DNA of 64,000 nucleotides from Cavenderia fasciculata (Eukaryota > Evosea > Eumycetozoa > Acytosteliales > Cavenderiaceae). A program made the position numbers and the translations under genes. Each line of letters starts with the position of its first letter. The first letter of the stretch is position 1. The DNA lies in NCBI RefSeq assembly GCF_000203815.1, contig NW_004457708.1, forward strand, positions 310,001 to 374,000. Direction: 5' to 3'. Positions 34,239 to 44,294 of the stretch are shown here, piece after piece. The notes under the pieces are model-generated. The model did no database searches and was not told where the DNA came from. It worked only from the letters and a program-made list of their open reading frames with translations.

Positions 34239-37200
34239 TTAATGAATTGAAATAATTGAACCATTTGATAAACCAAATAGTTCAGGTTGATTAGGAGAAT
34301 AAACTTTGGTTGGTGGAAGTGAATAAACTCCAAAGGAACTAGTGACAACTGCAAAGTAAGAGACTGTGTAACTACCTGCCAAGATATCTGTGCCTTGGAA
34401 GATGACCTTGTCTTTTCTAGTTTCTCTGTAGCCAAATGGAGAATACCAATAGTAACGAACGGTATCCCATTGTGGTGGAGTGTCTGGATTTTGATAGATG
34501 TTATTGTCTAGTGGTTCAATTACCGATGGTAATGGATCTTCGACATAGATAACTCCAACATCATCGTGAGTCGTAACCGATATGACAACCTCTACATAAT
34601 CACCATACTTGAAGGTTGTTGAACTTTGACTATTACTACTACTACTACTACTGTTGGTGTTCATAAATTTAATGACCTTTTCTACATAGAAACCATTGTA
34701 TACTGGTTTGTCTGGTAGTTTGGTTGGTACATATTCAATACCAACAGCAACCGACACTTCTCCAACACCAACTACTGAGAATAATAATTTTCCACTATTA
34801 TTACTATTATTGTTACCACTTACAAGTCCATCAAACTGAATAATCTTTTGAATATTCTTTGGACTTGTAGTATTAAATGATTGAGAGAGTAATAGATTGT
34901 TGACAGAGTTTTTGTAGGCACTAAATGTAAGATTTGGTTGGGTACTGTTTTTAGCCAGGTCATAACAAGTCATTGCAATGATAGAGAGGGCCATCTGTTC
35001 ACTTGAAACACCTGGTACCCACTTGTCAAAGGTGATGCTGGGGACGACACCACCCGACGCTATAAAGTTGACCATCTTTTCAAGGAATGGAGTGTCCATA
35101 TGCTTGGCCATGATAAATGAAATCGATGCGTAAATGGTCAATGAAAGAGATGATCTACCTCCTCCTCCAGTGACATAGGCAGTTCTACCTTGGATACGAA
35201 TTGCATTTTCAAGGTTTTGAATGACAGTTGGAATAAATGAAGATTGGTCACCGTCTCCATTCAAAAGTGTTGCAATCATAAAGTAGGATTGACATTGAAG
35301 ATCGCAATTATCTGAAATGTTGGCAGACAGAGCATTAAACGAGTAGAGTTCTATGAGTTCATCATTGGATGGTGCCCAATAATAACCAAGTGCAATACTA
35401 GCGAGACCGATCAGACTCTTGTCAACAGTATGATTGCCTTGATGTGCAGTGGTGACCAATTCGTTGACATAGGTGTCGATAAAACGTTGCCAGTCGCTAA
35501 AGTGAGCATCCAACAACACCCATCCATCAATGTGCTTGAGTCCCTTCATGAGATTTCGCAATTGGAGGGCGTATAGAGTAGGATAGAAACTACCAGTTAC
35601 ATCGGTTGGATACCATTTGATGTTACCCGAGACATATCTATCGAAACCCAACATGACAACCTTTAGTTGAGCCTGAGCTTCGTTGATGAGGGTGGTATTG
35701 GCATTGTAACTGGTCAGAGAGGCATAGGTTACCTGTTTTGATAGTTGGTCGACCGAAGATGGTGTTCTGTCATTACCAATGGACAATAGCTTGTTGCACA
35801 TGGTTTCTACGGATGGGTAACGTCCGACACCGACAACCATGTTCAATTGTCCAGTACCTGGTTCAGTATCTGGCAAGTTGATTCCTTCTTCTACAGTGGT
35901 ATTACTTGAAACAGCCATACTTGTACCAACATACATTGACAGTTGACGTCCGAGTACATCAAATTGAACCTCGATTGAGTCTAAAAGACGGTTGTCCAAA
36001 TAGACAAACAATCCCAAATCAACAGTTCCCTTTTTAAGTGCTTTGAAATTAAATAAACTGTTGATGGTGGTTCCATTTGACGACAAGGCAACAATTTTAC
36101 TGTAGCCTTCGGTAGATTCTGCGACAGAGGGATCAACCACCTTGACTACAAGTCTCATAATTCCAGATTGCGTTAGCTTGGGGTTGGAGATGACAATGGA
36201 AGCACCAAGATTGAATGTATCGCCAATACGAACAAATCTAGGGATGATTGGTAAAATATTGACATCCTTTCTTGAAGTGAGCGATGTTTCAGTAGAGTAG
36301 AGATAGTCTGTTGATTTGGAAACAACAAATGCTCGGACTTGGAATGTTGTAATGTCGTCGGGTAATCTAAAGGTAACCTGTCCTTTACCACCTTTGATGA
36401 GAACCTTGCTAGCAAAGAGAGGTGTAGTTTGGAAATTATTACGAAGCGATGTTTTAGAATTGTCTGTTTTTCCGCCGCTACCGGCGTCAGGTGCTGGTGG
36501 ACCACGAGATTTGGCAGCAATGGCATCAAACGACATTGGAATACCAGTATCTGCAGCTTCAAGGTTAACAATACCTCCTCCAGTTGTACCTCCATAGGAA
36601 GCATAGTATCGGTGACGGTATGGATTGGCCATATTGGTGAGATAGTTGAAAAGATTCTTGAAAAAGGCTGGATCTTCAACTTCAAATCCACTCCAATCCG
36701 ATATCCATTGATCGATTTTGAATCGTCTGAGGAGTATTTCTGCTTGTTTTGCGTAGGATCTGGTCAGCCCCTTGGTAGACTGATCGTACGATACAAAGCT
36801 GTGGGCATACATTGAAAAGGATTGACTGTCTGGCAGTTGTGATGGAACGAGGTCGAGAACACGTTTATCGACCACCATGACACATGCCTCGACTTGGTCT
36901 TGGAAAGGTTTTCCATTATCGAGTTGGTCAACGTGGAGGGTGATGGTCGTTTCAGAGTCGGGTGATACAATCTCGCTCTCCAACGAAACAGATAGATTGA
37001 GAATAGGTTGCACCTTGACATTCAAATTGATGCTTCCCGATGCACTCTTGGCAGAGAGTGGATCATATACTTGCGACACTGTACCTGCACCAATCTTGTA
37101 TCCCACCTCGTGTCCTTGAATCGAGATGACTGCAAACATTCCCAAAGTCTGGCACTTTGGAACCACCTTGATCGTGTAGTTGTTGAATCCATAGCCAACT

Positions 37201-40200
37201 TTGAATTGGTCATTGGTAGTCTTGGAGTCACATCCCCAGTAAAACAATGCTCTTGCCTCTTTGAATGGATTCCAATAGGTGATAACAACCTTGTCGCCGA
37301 CATAGTGGTTATTGTCATTGGTAAACAATTTCAAATCGTGGTTGGATTCTGTGATGATGTTGTTGGGTGAGTATCCATAATAGACATAGTGGTCTTGTCT
37401 GTCCTCAATCTCCAAGGTCTGTACTACCACCTGCTTGGTTTTTGGCTCGATACCCCTGACGACAATCACATTCTCTACAAAATCTTCAAACGTGAATGTG
37501 CACTGAGGGAAGCGAGCATCATCATACTGTTCTCTCTTTTCACTCTGAATGGTGCACAGTACATTGGATTGCTTGTTGTTGTCTTGGTGATAGTGACGAT
37601 TCTTTTTTCCATTTTTACGTTTTCTATCTGCGCTGTCTGCATTCTTTTCAGTGACACTGAGAGCCAATATCTCCCAATGAGTCAATTGAACGGTGAGTGC
37701 AACATTTTCAATGGTTTCACCAGTTGGTACATAATACATTCTAGCATTGAGACCTTGTGGAATGTATGGTACTTTGGACGACTGACTAGAGAATGCGACC
37801 AAGGTGATTTCAATGTCATAGGGATCGACCAAAACAAAACGTTCAAATGTGTTTGACATGACTGTGGCTCTGGTAGGATCGATATAAAAGGCAGAGAATT
37901 CAATCTGACTCTTGATATCATATTTGGCCGATGGGAAACTAAATGTATATGACGCATTTCCATCTTTACTGGTTGTAACTGATACTTGTTCCGTTTGTGA
38001 TGGATCACCAATTAATTTCCAACCAAGTTTAACCATTTGACCATTACTAGGTTCTCCAATATAATTGGTTGTCGATACATAAACTGTAATCTTTGAATCT
38101 TCATCATATTTAATATAATCATCTTTTGTACTAATCTCTAATATTCCAGTTGGTATTCTTGGATCTGCAATCAATACATCTATAGAGTAAACAAAAAATA
38201 AATTGAATTAATAAAAGATTTTCAATGTTTTAAAATATTATTATGATTATTATTATTTACCTGTATTGCTATAAAAATTATTTGAACTTTTATCAGTTAC
38301 ACTTGAACCAGAGATTGAAAGAGAGTAATAACCATAATTGGTACCTGGTGGGATAGGGATTGAAATATTGAGAGAATTGTAGACATCGTCAAAATCGACC
38401 ACCTTGTCAAATGTTTGAAGTGTACCAAGAATAGTCCATTGAACCGATATTTTGAAGATGAGATCGAGGATGATATCCTTGGGACCGTTCAAATAGGCCT
38501 TTAGATGAATAGTGTCACCTGCATTATAGAGTTTACGATCAGTGATGATTTGAGAGTTAATTCTTGGACTAGTACCATAAGGTCCATAGGTATTGGAACG
38601 ATAAGTAAATAGTTTTCCACCATACTCTACAACAATCCAATTTAATCTGAAACCAGCCAAATTAAAAGTAACCAATCCCTTTTTATCAGATATTGATTTA
38701 CCTATCAATTGTAAATTGTCAACGTTGTAATCACCTTGTTTTAGACCGTATCCATAGACTGTGGCATTGGCAACATTGGAAGCATCCTTTAATAAAAAGA
38801 TCCAATAAATGATTTCATTACCAATGTCTAGACGTGTCACACCCAACTGAGTGGCTTGCACCAACTCTGATGAATAGATGGCAGTACAATCGTATGAATA
38901 GTCTGTTCTAATTTGAAGGTATGATCCCGATGGTTTAAACGCTGCAACATTATCAATCTTTGCAGTGTACACTGTATTGTTGCTATCAACAATCAATGGT
39001 ATACTTTGTTGTGACTGTGATGGGATGATAAATGGTTTTCTAGATGAATCTTCCAATGTCTTTAATACACCAATTATATTATTCTTTGTAATTGGATATG
39101 CATACATTTTAAAATCAACATTTGAACATGGTTTGTTTGGATTATATGTTAAAAATGATTTTTTTGTTTCCTAAATGTAAAAAAAAATAAAAATAAACAT
39201 AAATTAATATCATACTCTATTTTTCTTTTTTGTTTTTTTTGTTTATAAACATACTAAAAGATTTTGATAAAAAATCATTGATTGATTTGGAAATGATATG
39301 GTTGAATCAAAAATGGGAGATCTAGCATAAGCAATATAATTATTACCAATACTCATATTAAAGGTATGAGTTTGAGCAAGTAATGGTAAATTCCAACCAT
39401 CCAATATTGGTTTGTTTTTAGGTGGTGAAACAATGAGTTTATAAGTGGTGGATGGTTTAAGTTTTGCTTCCAATTCAATGACTGTTGGCGTAATGATTGA
39501 TACCTTTAAATCAAGTGATGGTTTAAGGCTAAATACTTGAGCAAGATCCTCTTCCGTTACACTTGGCATTAATGAATGGCGAACATATAATCTTTGTCTA
39601 TGATGAGTTGCTTCTGATTCACTAAAAAATAAATAAATAGATTTAATAATTAATCAATCAAATAAGATAAAGTCTCTATCTTCTATCTTTTTCTATTCTT
39701 ACATGAAATAAAAATTAAATGGGTATAAACCATTAACTTTAACACTAATGGCTTCAGATAGTGGACCAGAGCTATTGTGGATACGAATACCTTGAGGTAT
39801 TTCAATGACATAGGTAGAGTATGGGTTGACCTCTAGTTGGCTGCCAAGTGTGATACACACCTCTTTTTCTCCACACCCTTCACCGGTGAGATAGGTGATT
39901 TTGAGGACCGCAGCATTCTTTGATTCGTATTGGTAGACACGCATTGCTTCTTTAACACGATCAATCTCAAAGAGCGACGAAATGTACAGTTTGATGACTG
40001 CGTCGGGTGGCACTTCATAGTTGTCCTTGTAGTCTTGTTCATCGACTCTTCTAGCGGGTGTGTAGGTTGTCCACTCGCCATTAGTCATCTCAGAAGACCG
40101 ATTGGATGTGATCGAAGTGATTGACAGTGATGGAGATGCAGTGTAGTAGGCTATGGGTGGTGGCACGGATGAGATGGCCAATCCATCGTACGACTTTAAC

Positions 40201-40793
40201 GTTTCATCGACACTGAATTGACACTGTAGGTCTGATGGCCATCCATTGACCAATACATCGAATCTTGCAATCGATGTGGTCACCCAACGATAACTACCGG
40301 CCGGTACTGGAGTATCCGATCCTTTGCAACTCAGCTTGAATGGAAAGTAGGTAGATGGTTCACCAAGTGCAATAATCGGTCTGTTAAATGCCACAATGAT
40401 AGGTTGTGTGCCAGACAATTGGTAAGGTGTCTTATCATCTCCTTCATTCTTTGGTACAATGTCTATTACTTTGATTGGGAATGATCGTAGTGATGGTATA
40501 TTATCATTACCTCCGTCACCATTACCATTATCATCAGAAGAAGATACTTCCAAGACAACTTTTGCAGCGGCAGGTTGCTCTTGTTCATTGTCTACTAAAT
40601 GTGACGTTTGAAGTGGTAGTTTAATAGGTGTTGGTTGTCTCTCTATACATGGATGAGCAGGCTCTGGTGGAGGAGGTGGTGGAGAAGATAGTGCTGATGA
40701 ATCAACAAACACATGATGATTATTATTATTTACATATAGTATTATAAAAAAGAAGAACAATAACAATATTGATAATCGTTTCAAACTATCCAT
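34239..40793 (-). CDS. Alpha-2-macroglobulin-like secreted protein without a recognisable thioester
   Basis: Four exons (39703-40793, 39255-39621, 38261-39170, 34239-38179) with matching phases give 2102 residues. The N-terminus has a hydrophobic signal (SILLLFFFFIILYV) preceded by Lys/Arg, then a Pro-rich stretch. Repeated macroglobulin (MG) beta domains follow: KGLVTFNLAGFRLNWIVVEY, RKLYNAGDTIHLKAYL, then EISTKDDYIKYDEDSKITVY. The A2M-type centre has LRNNFQTTPLFASKVLIKGG and FRLPDDITTFQVRAFVVS. An alpha/alpha helical domain and a C-terminal receptor-binding-like domain follow. The organisation is of the bacterial YfhM/protease-trapping type. Where the thioester C-x-E-Q motif is expected, I read YPSVETMCNKLLSIGND, so covalent trapping is unlikely. 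It is probably secreted or surface-bound. Confidence 0.85.
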
Positions 40794-41768: not shown

Positions 41769-44117
41769 CTATTTTTGGATTAATTTGTATAGATCATCAA
41801 ATTCATTCTCTGTAATAATAGTTGTTCCATTTTGTTCAGCTTTTGTTATTTTACTACTACCTGCATCTTGACCCATTAATAAATAATTGGTATTCTTTCG
41901 AATCTGACTTTGAATGATTCCTCCAAAATTGTGTTGCACAATGTCTTGGATTTCCTCTCTTGTCATGTTTTTGAATTTACCTGTCACTACCACATTCTTG
42001 TCTTTAAATATACTCGATTGTTGTAAAGTTGTTGTTGAACTATTCTTCTTTTCATCTGATCTATTTTGATTTCTATTTTGTGATTGACTATCATAAACAT
42101 TATGTTTTTGAATGATTGATAATAATTTTTCGATTCCGTCTTTTGATTGTTGATCAGTTGGATGGAAATAGTAATAAATGTTGGTTGAAATGTTTGGACC
42201 GAGATCACCAACAACTTCAATGTCTTGAAGGGATGCGGTGGCTAGTGACTCGATCGTGGTGAATCGCTCGGCCAGCCACTTGCAGCTGGCTTTGCCAACA
42301 CCCGGTATACCGAGCGCGCAGAAGAGGTGTGCAAGATTCTCCTTTTTGCTCTTCTCAACCGACTCTATCATGTTGGCGACTTTTTTGTCGCTGAATCCAC
42401 GTAGCTTTAAGAGTTGATCCTTTTTGTCGGCAAGACTGTACAAATCGCCGATATCCTGTATCAAGCCATACTCGAGCAACACTTTGATCTGCGACGGTCC
42501 GATCCCCGTCATATTCATGCCGTCCTTGCTGACATACCAACTGATACTCTGGAGTCGCTGGTTAGGACAGTTACTCTCAAAGCAGTAGTAGTCTTGATAC
42601 CCATCTGGCTGAGACAACGGTGATCCTAGTGCACACGGACATTTGAGTGAGTCGCCATCGGTGGCGGATGTAGGACACCGATCAAACATATCAAGTAACT
42701 CTTTCTTGGTCATTGGTTCTTTTGCATCGAGTGATTGGATGATCTTGGGAATGACGTCGCCAGCTCGTTCAACCAATACACGCGATCCTGTACGAACACC
42801 AAGTTTCTGAATAAACAGTAGATTGTTGAGTGTGGCTCGCGAAACGGTGACACCGTGGATATCGACGGGTTCCACCTCTGCCACGGGTGTCACTTTACCA
42901 GACCGACCAATCTGCAGTTGGATACTCTTTACCACCGTCGGCATACTTCTTGCACCAAACTTGTAGGCGACAGCCCATCTCGGCGACCGATTAGCCTGTC
43001 CCAGTATAGCTTGTTTCTCCAACGAATTAACCTTGACCACAATCCCATCGATATCCCAATCAAAAGATTCTCTTTTCTCTCCAGACCACATTTTAATAAA
43101 TTCTTCCAATCTTGATGAATCTCTCTGTGACAATGATCCAACCAATATAGCATTTCTATCAATATTAAATCCAATCTTTTCAAGTAATATAATATTATTA
43201 TTATGTGTATTAGTATTATTATTATTTTGATTATTATTATTTTGATTATTATTAATTTGATTATTTTGATTTTGATGAATAAATAATTGATATGATATAA
43301 AATCAAATTCAATACCAAAAGGATTATCCAATTCTTCTTGTTTTGGGTCTAGAATAGATCGAAGTTTACCAGATACTATATTTCTTGTATTCTTGTATTC
43401 AACCTCGTCATTCATTGATCTCCAAGTATTTAACTTTTCAAGTTGGCTCTTTTTAAATACAACTTCACCTCTTACTTCGATCTTGTCGTTTTGACCAAGT
43501 GTAAGATTGTTGTTGTTGTTGACCAAATGAGAAGTAGATATTTGTTTTGGTAATGATGGAATATAATATAATGCATTGGTTGTTATAATTTCACCAATAT
43601 CTCCATCACCTCTTGTTGCAATTCTTTCCAATTTACCAAATGAATCGTAAACTATTGATAATCCAATACCATCATATTTCAATTCACAACTAAATTCTAA
43701 ATTATTATTATTGTTGTTGTTTGAAATACCACTACTACTCTTTGATAGATTACCCAATACTCTTGATTCAAATGCCATTAAATCTTCTTTTGAATAGGTA
43801 TTGTCAAGTGATAACATTCTAACTATATGTTTAACCTTTTCACCTCTTTCATTGCCTGCCGTTGCAATAGGTGCTCCTACTTGATTGATTGGTGTTGTAC
43901 TACCACTACCACTAGCCGACAAGTCTGTACTTCCAGAGTACTGTGATTCATACAATTGTTCTAAAGTTTCTAGCTTTTTGAACAACATGTCATATTCAAA
44001 GTCTGATATGACAGTCTCTGATTTGTTGTAGTACAAGTCGTTATACTTGTTGATATCATTCCTCAATGTTTTAATGTCATCTACAAGTTGATTTCTACTA
44101 TAGTACTTGTTGATTGG

Positions 44118-44166
<49 letters not shown>

Positions 44167-44294
44167 GAGGATGAAGACGTCGTACTACTATAACGATGGA
44201 TGAAGGGATGGTGCAATGCAGACAAAGGTGATGCAGCTGCAAACCTGAGGTTCAATGATGTTGGTAACCATTTGTTGAATTTCAACATTTGCAT
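41769..44294 (-). CDS. ligA: NAD+-dependent DNA ligase (bacterial LigA type), probably mitochondrial
   Basis: It seals nicks using NAD+ as AMP donor, unlike the ATP-dependent ligases usual in eukaryotes. A single exon of 841 residues carries all LigA parts in order. The Ia domain contains YNDLYYNKSETVISDFEYD. The adenylation motif is CELKYDGIGLSIVY, with the active Lys near residue 200, and ATRGDGDIGEIITTN and EVRGEVVF follow. The OB fold has QIGRSGKVTPVAEVEPV and GVTVSRATLNN. A Cys-rich zinc region follows (DRCPTSATDG, LKCPCALGS, YYCFESNCPNQR), then helix-hairpin-helix repeats (LRGFSDKKVANMIE, GIPGVGKASCKWLA) and a C-terminal BRCT domain (KNVVVTGKFKNMTREEIQ). The first 40 residues are basic and hydroxyl-rich with no acidic residue (MQMLKFNKWLPTSLNLRFAA), typical of a mitochondrial presequence. 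A Ser run and Asn runs account for the extra length over bacterial enzymes (about 670). Confidence 0.93.

What the first reader, a model, noticed from the sequence alone, without database searches (positions are those of the whole stretch)
41769..44294. Full-length bacterial-type NAD+ DNA ligase with a mitochondrial-like presequence in a eukaryotic nuclear genome
Seen: all LigA parts in order, with an intact CELKYDG adenylation site, OB fold, Cys-rich zinc region, HhH repeats and BRCT, plus a basic, acid-free N-terminal extension and dictyostelid-style Ser/Asn insertions. It has no intron although many neighbours do. Known: eukaryotes normally seal DNA with ATP-dependent ligases, and NAD+ ligases are bacterial or from some large viruses. 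Inference: an acquired ligase has become the mitochondrial ligase of this lineage.
Basis: partly seen in the sequence, partly recalled or inferred. Interest (0 to 1): 0.8.

Follow-up and report, generated by a model that had tools for sequence, protein, structure and literature searches.

The report
Bacterial-type DNA ligase in social amoebae
A social-amoeba nuclear genome carries an apparently intact bacterial-style, NAD+-using DNA ligase whose front end looks like a mitochondrial address label, so it probably seals mitochondrial DNA; relatives of it were already on record, and no test of where it works in the cell was found.

Summary
The ORF is real and intact: 41769-44294 (-), 841 codons, no intron, over the curated cut-off of LigA model TIGR00575, K206 at the place of E. 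coli K115, LigA-like predicted fold. It lies in a 31.0 Mb eukaryotic genome, one place found. Orthologues in Dictyostelium discoideum, D. firmibasis, Tieghemostelium and Heterostelium form one clade with it (100/100), so it very likely predates the dictyostelid radiation. A mitochondrial role is likely but inferred: residues 1-71 hold no acidic residue and an MPP-like RYS site; EF-Tu and HSP60 of this genome show like sites, 0 of 22 other window ORFs do; its three ATP ligases show none. Against it, the 18-residue amphipathic moment is low. The donor is open: neither alphaproteobacterial (p-AU 0.226, 0.109) nor Kapaibacteria-like origin (0.445) is rejected. The D. discoideum protein was in a 2009 tree, and a ligA with a predicted mitochondrial transit peptide is in print for Paulinella. 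New member of a known kind; moderate interest.

The parts
41769..44294 (-). LigA ORF, 841 aa, single exon
44190..44294 (-). presequence-like residues 1-35, ending H33-R34-Y35 before S36-S37 (R-2-type MPP-like site; the motif type is recalled)
   Evidence: pLDDT under 50 for residues 1-64
44118..44177 (-). poly-Ser run, residues 40-59
   Evidence: translation, DNA; position counted back from D72
43938..44066 (-). domain Ia (NMN-binding side of NAD+, recalled role), residues 77-119, weak Pfam match
   Evidence: 22.8 bits, cut-off 27; Y88, Y89, D98, D102 invariant in 39 rows
42951..43841 (-). adenylation domain, residues 152-448, with an Asn-rich insert around 340-367
43677..43679 (-). codon of K206, the predicted AMP-accepting lysine (E. 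coli K115)
   Evidence: alignment, where the E. coli K115M chain 5tt5 has M at this place
42714..42938 (-). OB fold, residues 453-527
42567..42641 (-). variant zinc finger C-P-C-x16-C-x4-C, residues 552-576
42150..42512 (-). helix-hairpin-helix region, residues 595-715
41790..42020 (-). BRCT domain, residues 759-835

Best explanation
This is a working NAD+-dependent DNA ligase of bacterial descent, held by dictyostelids since before their radiation. It is made in the cytosol, enters the mitochondrial matrix by a cleavable N-terminal presequence, and seals nicks left by mtDNA replication and repair: domain Ia binds the nicotinamide half of NAD+, K206 takes AMP and releases NMN, AMP passes to the 5' phosphate at the nick, and the nick is closed; OB fold, zinc finger, HhH and BRCT hold the DNA. 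Shown here: intact gene, domains and catalytic residues, presence in five dictyostelids, presequence-like N-terminus, no visible presequence on the three ATP ligases. Inferred: activity, import and the mtDNA role. The chemistry is established LigA knowledge (recalled), not tested here.
For: Family score over cut-off. E. coli K115 equivalent present; E204, K206, D208, R228, R275, E277, R304, D416, K421, K445 invariant over the 39 LigA that I aligned. AlphaFold model pLDDT 78.7; PDB ranks 1-6 are LigA at 28-30% identity. Orthologues in four further dictyostelid species, clade support 100/100. N-terminus acid-free to D72 with an R-Y-S site; EF-Tu (ARYFRTSS) and HSP60 (SRSYSTG) of the same genome, mitochondrial by family, carry like sites; a topoisomerase II-type protein (KRLYSAST) does too, a weaker control because its own location is inferred. 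Motif within an acid-free stretch: LigA yes, 0 of 22 other window ORFs, none in the typed N-termini of the three ATP ligases. T. lacteum KRYFSSTT and H. album IRYFSVV lie just before the enzyme domains. ATP-ligase core: three places found; the genes, which I name LIG1, LIG3 and LIG4 from recall, open with MQSSMLSFLTKK, MSTNTTPPDKSG and MLSLHYDEDDDD. Disruption of D. discoideum lig3 is described in PMC8529158 (passage), so it is survivable. In mouse cells E. coli LigA with a targeting sequence stood in for Lig3 in mtDNA upkeep (PMC4816344, passages).
Against: No localisation data were found. The 18-residue hydrophobic moment of the LigA N-terminus is low (0.22; 1834 of 2000 shuffles as high or higher; 0.16, 963 of 1000). 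HSP60 and the topoisomerase fail it as well (778 and 962 of 1000) but EF-Tu passes (8 of 1000), so the test is weak, not void. LIG1's first 40 residues are also net +4 (first acidic residue at 14). D. firmibasis has an acidic residue at 22, and D. discoideum and D. firmibasis have K-F-T where this protein has R-Y-S. The motif was drafted after seeing the LigA sequence and also hits R17-F-A in LigA. The 22 control ORFs may include inner exons with false starts. Starts of the T. lacteum and H. album models are unsure (fused models). Unseen upstream exons with a presequence on the ATP ligases cannot be ruled out from genomic DNA.
Confidence: 0.72

Rival explanations
1. The enzyme works in nucleus or cytosol, for example in repair or on extrachromosomal DNA, and the basic N-terminus is only a low-complexity tail.
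For: Low amphipathic moment; N-terminus predicted disordered; Ser and Asn runs are common in dictyostelid proteins (recalled).
Against: 71 residues without an acidic one, with an MPP-like site; similar RYFS sites in T. lacteum and H. album; 0 of 22 neighbour ORFs show that combination; three ATP-ligase genes are there for the nucleus.
Confidence: 0.2
2. The gene came with the mitochondrial endosymbiont (endosymbiotic transfer) or from a later alphaproteobacterium, and not from another bacterial group.
For: The AU test does not reject dictyostelids with alphaproteobacteria: p 0.226 (61 rows, 13 alphaproteobacterial) and 0.109 (71 rows, 7 alphaproteobacterial). One alphaproteobacterial row (L188) has a C-P-C zinc finger.
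Against: The 13 alphaproteobacterial rows of the 61-row tree (of 18 identified) form a 100/100 clade inside a 100/100 Pseudomonadota clade, apart from dictyostelids. Kapaibacteria-like LigA share the exact CPC-x16-C-x4-C finger.
Confidence: 0.2
3. The gene came from a giant virus (NCLDV).
For: Some NCLDV encode NAD+ ligases (PMC2806865, passages), and some infect amoebae (recalled).
Against: In structure alignments the named NCLDV ligases among the 50 rows shown share 12-20% identity with the model (Mimivirus LCMiAC02 20, IIV-6 18, Marseillevirus LCMAC201 17, two entomopoxviruses 19 and 16, salmon gill poxvirus 12, APMV 20), with one 176-residue Moumouvirus piece at 27%, against 28-30% for PDB ranks 1-6. 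PMC2806865 reports NCLDV NAD ligases as one clade in a branch of mostly gammaproteobacterial and some phage ligases; the figure was not seen. No row known to be NCLDV was in my trees, so sequence phylogeny did not test this.
Confidence: 0.05
4. Bacterial contamination of the assembly.
For: The nearest listed relatives after the dictyostelids are bacterial where named.
Against: Poly-Ser and poly-Asn inserts; GC and GC3 (0.334) inside the range of the neighbours; neighbouring eukaryotic-type genes; a contig of a 31.0 Mb genome; orthologues in four other dictyostelids.
Confidence: 0.01

Closest known systems
Bacterial LigA (TIGR00575; E. coli LigA, PDB 2owo and 5tt5)
   Same: Domains in order, catalytic residues, predicted fold.
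   Different: N-terminal extension of about 65 residues, Ser and Asn inserts, NTRN in place of NPRN (NTRN 5 of 5 dictyostelids, 5 of 327 bacterial or archaeal rows), and a C-x1-C start of the zinc finger (5 of 5 against 3 of 327).
D. discoideum NAD+ ligase (P0001; UniRef name 'DNA ligase (NAD(+))')
   Same: Direct orthologue, 44% identity over 90%; the species is in a published NAD-ligase tree (PMC2806865, legend read).
   Different: Same plan; its N-terminus has a higher amphipathic moment (0.50) and K-F-T in place of R-Y-S.
Paulinella nuclear ligA with predicted mtTP or crTP
   Same: Nuclear NAD+ ligase with an organelle-targeting prediction (PMC9450145 and PMC7826189, passages).
   Different: Another eukaryotic supergroup (recalled); no sequence was available here, so kinship with the dictyostelid gene is untested.
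Mammalian mitochondrial LIG3
   Same: The job proposed: sealing mtDNA nicks (PMC4816344, passages).
   Different: Uses ATP; the LIG3-like gene of this genome shows no presequence.

Membership tests
NAD+-dependent DNA ligase LigA (TIGR00575) | Score over the curated cut-off | tested here: met
   507.7 against 444.45 bits
NAD+-dependent DNA ligase LigA (TIGR00575) | Domain order Ia, adenylation, OB, Zn, HhH, BRCT | tested here: met
   Pfam calls in order; Ia below its cut-off; zinc finger only by its four Cys
NAD+-dependent DNA ligase LigA (TIGR00575) | Catalytic KxDG lysine and partners | tested here: met
   K206 aligned to E. coli K115; invariant list over 39 rows
NAD+-dependent DNA ligase LigA (TIGR00575) | Cys4 zinc finger C-x2-C-x(12-15)-C-x(4-5)-C | tested here: inconclusive
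   308 of 327 bacterial or archaeal rows fit one of the four common spacings; here four Cys are kept but the first pair is C-x1-C and the loop 16, as in two Kapaibacteria-like LigA and 76 of 120 of their relatives
NAD+-dependent DNA ligase LigA (TIGR00575) | Nick sealing with NAD+ | not testable with these tools
   needs purified protein
Presequence-bearing mitochondrial matrix protein | Basic, acid-poor N-terminus with an MPP-like site | tested here: met
   two same-genome controls that are mitochondrial by family, a third weaker; motif chosen after seeing the sequence
Presequence-bearing mitochondrial matrix protein | Amphipathic helix | tested here: not met
   mu18 0.22, 1834 of 2000 shuffles as high; mu11 0.50, 290 of 1000; HSP60 and the topoisomerase fail as well, EF-Tu passes
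Presequence-bearing mitochondrial matrix protein | Location in mitochondria | not testable with these tools
   needs a tagged protein or matrix proteomics

The most novel reading that the evidence does not exclude
In dictyostelids the only DNA-sealing activity inside mitochondria is an NAD+-dependent bacterial-type ligase, fixed before the group radiated, while LIG1, LIG3 and LIG4 are purely nuclear: a natural counterpart of the engineered mouse cells that live on targeted E. coli LigA, with mtDNA upkeep tied to matrix NAD+ and not to ATP. Its CPC zinc finger hints at a Kapaibacteria-like donor.
Probability: 0.5. Interest if true: 0.62.

Novelty: new member of a known kind. Interest (0 to 1): 0.45.

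Why it matters
If true, mtDNA of a eukaryote depends on an enzyme class that is pursued as an antibacterial target (abstract starts in the listing) and is not part of the usual eukaryotic nuclear toolkit (recalled). D. discoideum, a tractable model with the same gene, could show whether mtDNA replication follows NAD+ supply and whether LigA inhibitors act on mitochondria. It also adds DNA ligase to bacterial-like DNA-metabolism enzymes of dictyostelids such as ThyX and dCTP deaminases (PMC10733785, abstract and passages).

Tried and rejected
Donor search: trees of 103, 61 and 71 rows. In the quick 103-row tree a long phage-like row (L095, end branch 2.88) joined the dictyostelids at SH-aLRT 96 and Leptotrichia came next at 89; I read this as long-branch attraction. 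For the 61-row tree I dropped the 10 viral rows, 8 long or odd rows and 24 more to thin the set; for the 71-row tree I added 3 + 19 Bacteroidota and Kapaibacteria-like rows and dropped 12. Four of the five dictyostelid rows are flagged for unusual letter make-up. AU tests of dictyostelids with: alphaproteobacteria 0.226 and 0.109, all Pseudomonadota rows 0.452, Leptotrichia 0.482, Kapaibacteria-like rows 0.445 (none rejected), Bacillota 0.022 (rejected). With FCB bacteria no test was needed on 61 rows, where they are one side of a branch at 56/83; on 71 rows the FCB rows cluster without dictyostelids at 93/98. The donor stays open.

NCLDV: of 69 viral loci, 40 records were searched for the NCLDV capsid family (0 matches, no positive control rang) and 28 for Pox_VLTF3 (0 matches, only B. 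subtilis rang, below cut-off). This only suggests that my viral loci are mostly phage.

Other eukaryotes: in the best 120 rows the only rows with a eukaryotic name or EukProt source are dictyostelids, but most rows carry no name, and only about 8000 candidates sharing most words were scored each time. Absence elsewhere is not shown; Paulinella, known from print, did not appear. D. purpureum, Polysphondylium violaceum and Acytostelium did not appear either, which I could not follow up.

Considered and dropped: contamination; pseudogene (no stop inside, catalytic set kept); zinc finger lost (four Cys kept).

In-print check: ten paper searches; I saw their listings and read passages of 11 papers. 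None of what I saw reports localisation or knockout of a dictyostelid LigA. PMC6299598 (Twm1) and PMC8584165 (mitochondrial phosphoproteome) have no 'ligase' in the main text.

Full report
What is there. The minus strand at 41769-44294 encodes 841 aa without intron. The frame opens four codons before the ATG, so no longer N-terminus is hidden in this exon. Pfam calls the adenylation domain 152-448, OB fold 453-527, HhH 595-646 and 657-715, and BRCT 759-835; domain Ia 77-119 scores below its cut-off. The LigA model TIGR00575 is passed with 507.7 bits, 444.45 being needed. The PDB sequence search puts E. coli LigA first (E 2.2e-78), and in the alignment to the E. coli K115M chain K206 stands at the mutated residue. 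Y88, Y89, D98, D102, E204, K206, D208, G209, R228, R275, E277, R304, D416, G417, K421 and K445 are invariant in the 39 LigA that I aligned. The AlphaFold model has mean pLDDT 78.7 and pTM 0.58, with residues 1-64 under 50. PDB ranks 1-6 are LigA structures at 28-30% identity with TM-scores of 0.29-0.39 by query; two adenylation-domain chains (7k72) reach 0.80 and 0.82 by target. I read the low full-length scores as differing domain arrangements and rest the fold claim on single domains and alignments.

Where it is. The window is G000:C12:310001-374000 of a 31.0 Mb, 21-contig genome, and this is the one LigA place found there. The four eukaryotic relatives that I could recognise in the lists are dictyostelids: D. 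discoideum 44% identity, D. firmibasis 43%, T. lacteum 37%, H. album 40%. The label 'Cfas' in my scripts is a guess for a group 1 dictyostelid (Cavenderia; taxonomy) and is not confirmed. GC3 is 0.334, inside the range of the 11 longer neighbour ORFs (0.198-0.384).

Age. The five dictyostelid proteins form one clade with 100/100 support in the careful trees of 61 rows and 71 rows. As the sampled genera stand for the main dictyostelid groups (recalled classification, and a guess for the window), the gene was very likely present in their common ancestor. The inner branching puts Heterostelium outermost, against the accepted pairing of groups 1 and 2 (recalled); its branch is long.

Source. The dictyostelid stem is long and the donor is not resolved. 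Alphaproteobacteria were recognised among unnamed Pseudomonadota by the GcrA family: 18 of 69 genomes carried it, and its control rang in Caulobacter but also in Sulfolobus. The 13 alphaproteobacterial rows of the 61-row tree form a 100/100 clade apart from dictyostelids, yet a joint clade is not rejected (p-AU 0.226; 0.109 with 7 such rows). The zinc finger gives a hint. Dictyostelids have C-P-C-x16-C-x4-C (x15 in T. lacteum), 5 of 5. Of 327 bacterial and archaeal rows, 3 have a C-x1-C start: L005 and L006, which are Kapaibacteria-like and the two best genome hits, and one alphaproteobacterium with a last gap of 5 (my pattern takes the first fit in each protein). A search with L005 and L006 gave 120 relatives, of which 76 show the same finger and 44 did not fit my pattern; that set was picked by kinship to L005 and L006. 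A clade of dictyostelids with these rows is compatible with the data (p-AU 0.445) but is not the best tree, in which the FCB rows cluster without dictyostelids at 93/98. One character that also arose in an alphaproteobacterium is not proof. No row known to be NCLDV was in the trees; by structure alignment the named NCLDV ligases are less like the model (12-20% identity; one Moumouvirus piece 27%) than PDB ranks 1-6 (28-30%).

Why mitochondria. The first acidic residue is D72, and the first 40 residues carry four K or R. After R34-Y35 come S36-S37. Two proteins of the same genome that are mitochondrial by family show like sites: EF-Tu ...GARYFRTSS and HSP60 ...VSRSYSTG. A topoisomerase II-type protein, below the gyrB cut-off (202.6 of 882.4 bits), has ...NKRLYSAST; it is a weaker control, as its location is inferred from this same feature. 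T. lacteum LigA has NKRYFSSTT and H. album NIRYFSVVK directly before the enzyme; D. discoideum has SSKFTTTT and D. firmibasis ISKFTTTN. The motif R.?[YF]{1,2}[SAR] in an acid-free stretch occurs in LigA and in the controls, in 0 of 22 other window ORFs, and not in the typed N-termini of the three ATP ligases. The motif was set after seeing the sequences, and some of the 22 ORFs may be inner exons. Against this, the 18-residue hydrophobic moment is low; HSP60 and the topoisomerase are unremarkable too, EF-Tu is not. No trained predictor was at hand.

Which other ligase could do the job. The ATP-ligase core family matches three places in the genome. The gene that I call LIG1 starts with MQSSMLSFLTKK, like a PCNA-binding box (recalled), with a stop three codons upstream; its first 40 residues are net +4 but acidic from residue 14. 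LIG3 starts MSTNTTPPDKSG, LIG4 MLSLHYDEDDDD. None looks like a presequence to me; unseen upstream exons remain possible. D. discoideum lig3 disruption is described (PMC8529158, passage), so LIG3 is dispensable there. In mouse cells E. coli LigA with a targeting sequence keeps mtDNA at normal level in place of Lig3, and without one it does so at reduced copy number in most clones (PMC4816344, passages). So the proposed role is feasible.

What was known. Yutin and Koonin 2009 list Dictyostelium discoideum in the legend of their NAD-ligase tree and call such ligases sporadic in eukaryotes (PMC2806865, passages); UniRef names the orthologues 'DNA ligase (NAD(+))'. Paulinella micropora has three nuclear genes of this KEGG class, one with a predicted chromatophore and one with a predicted mitochondrial transit peptide, all listed as eukaryotic in origin (PMC9450145, passages; PMC7826189 on the chromatophore-targeted ligA, passages). 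Hence an organelle-targeted eukaryotic LigA is a known kind. I saw no report on the location or loss of a dictyostelid LigA; the searches and their limits are under Tried and rejected.

Verdict. The mitochondrial reading is the best explanation (0.72), still an inference from sequence. The source is open. A specialist would find it worth a quick localisation and knockout test in D. discoideum, but not astonishing.

Noticed in passing
proteins P0003 (T. lacteum) and P0121 (H. album): Database gene models fuse LigA to other sequence: a stretch with a PF05685 (Uma2) label in the T. lacteum protein, and a large part with IPT/TIG-type labels behind the H. album LigA. The N-termini of these models are unreliable.
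   Followed up: partly
L005 1501-3501, L006 1501-3480: Kapaibacteria-like LigA have the unusual CPC-x16-C-x4-C zinc finger; 76 of 120 relatives fit it.
   Followed up: partly
L232 (G000:C1:2085300-2086600, minus strand): A topoisomerase II-type protein of the same genome has a long basic N-terminus ending in KRLYSAST and may be the mitochondrial topoisomerase; a second gyrB-like gene lies on C8.
   Followed up: no
G000 C5:2318571, C14:108652, C19:237295: DNA polymerase A-family matches at three places of the genome; which one is mitochondrial was not settled.
   Followed up: no
window 34239-40793 (-): A large alpha-2-macroglobulin-type protein with a bMG10 domain, spread over several ORFs, next to the ligase gene.
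   Followed up: no
genomes G066, G081, G089, G093, G097, G101, G105, G129: Eight of 100 Pseudomonadota genomes listed a second, shorter LigA-family match below the cut-off over about 505-576 model positions, LigB-like by recall; the list was cut short.
   Followed up: no
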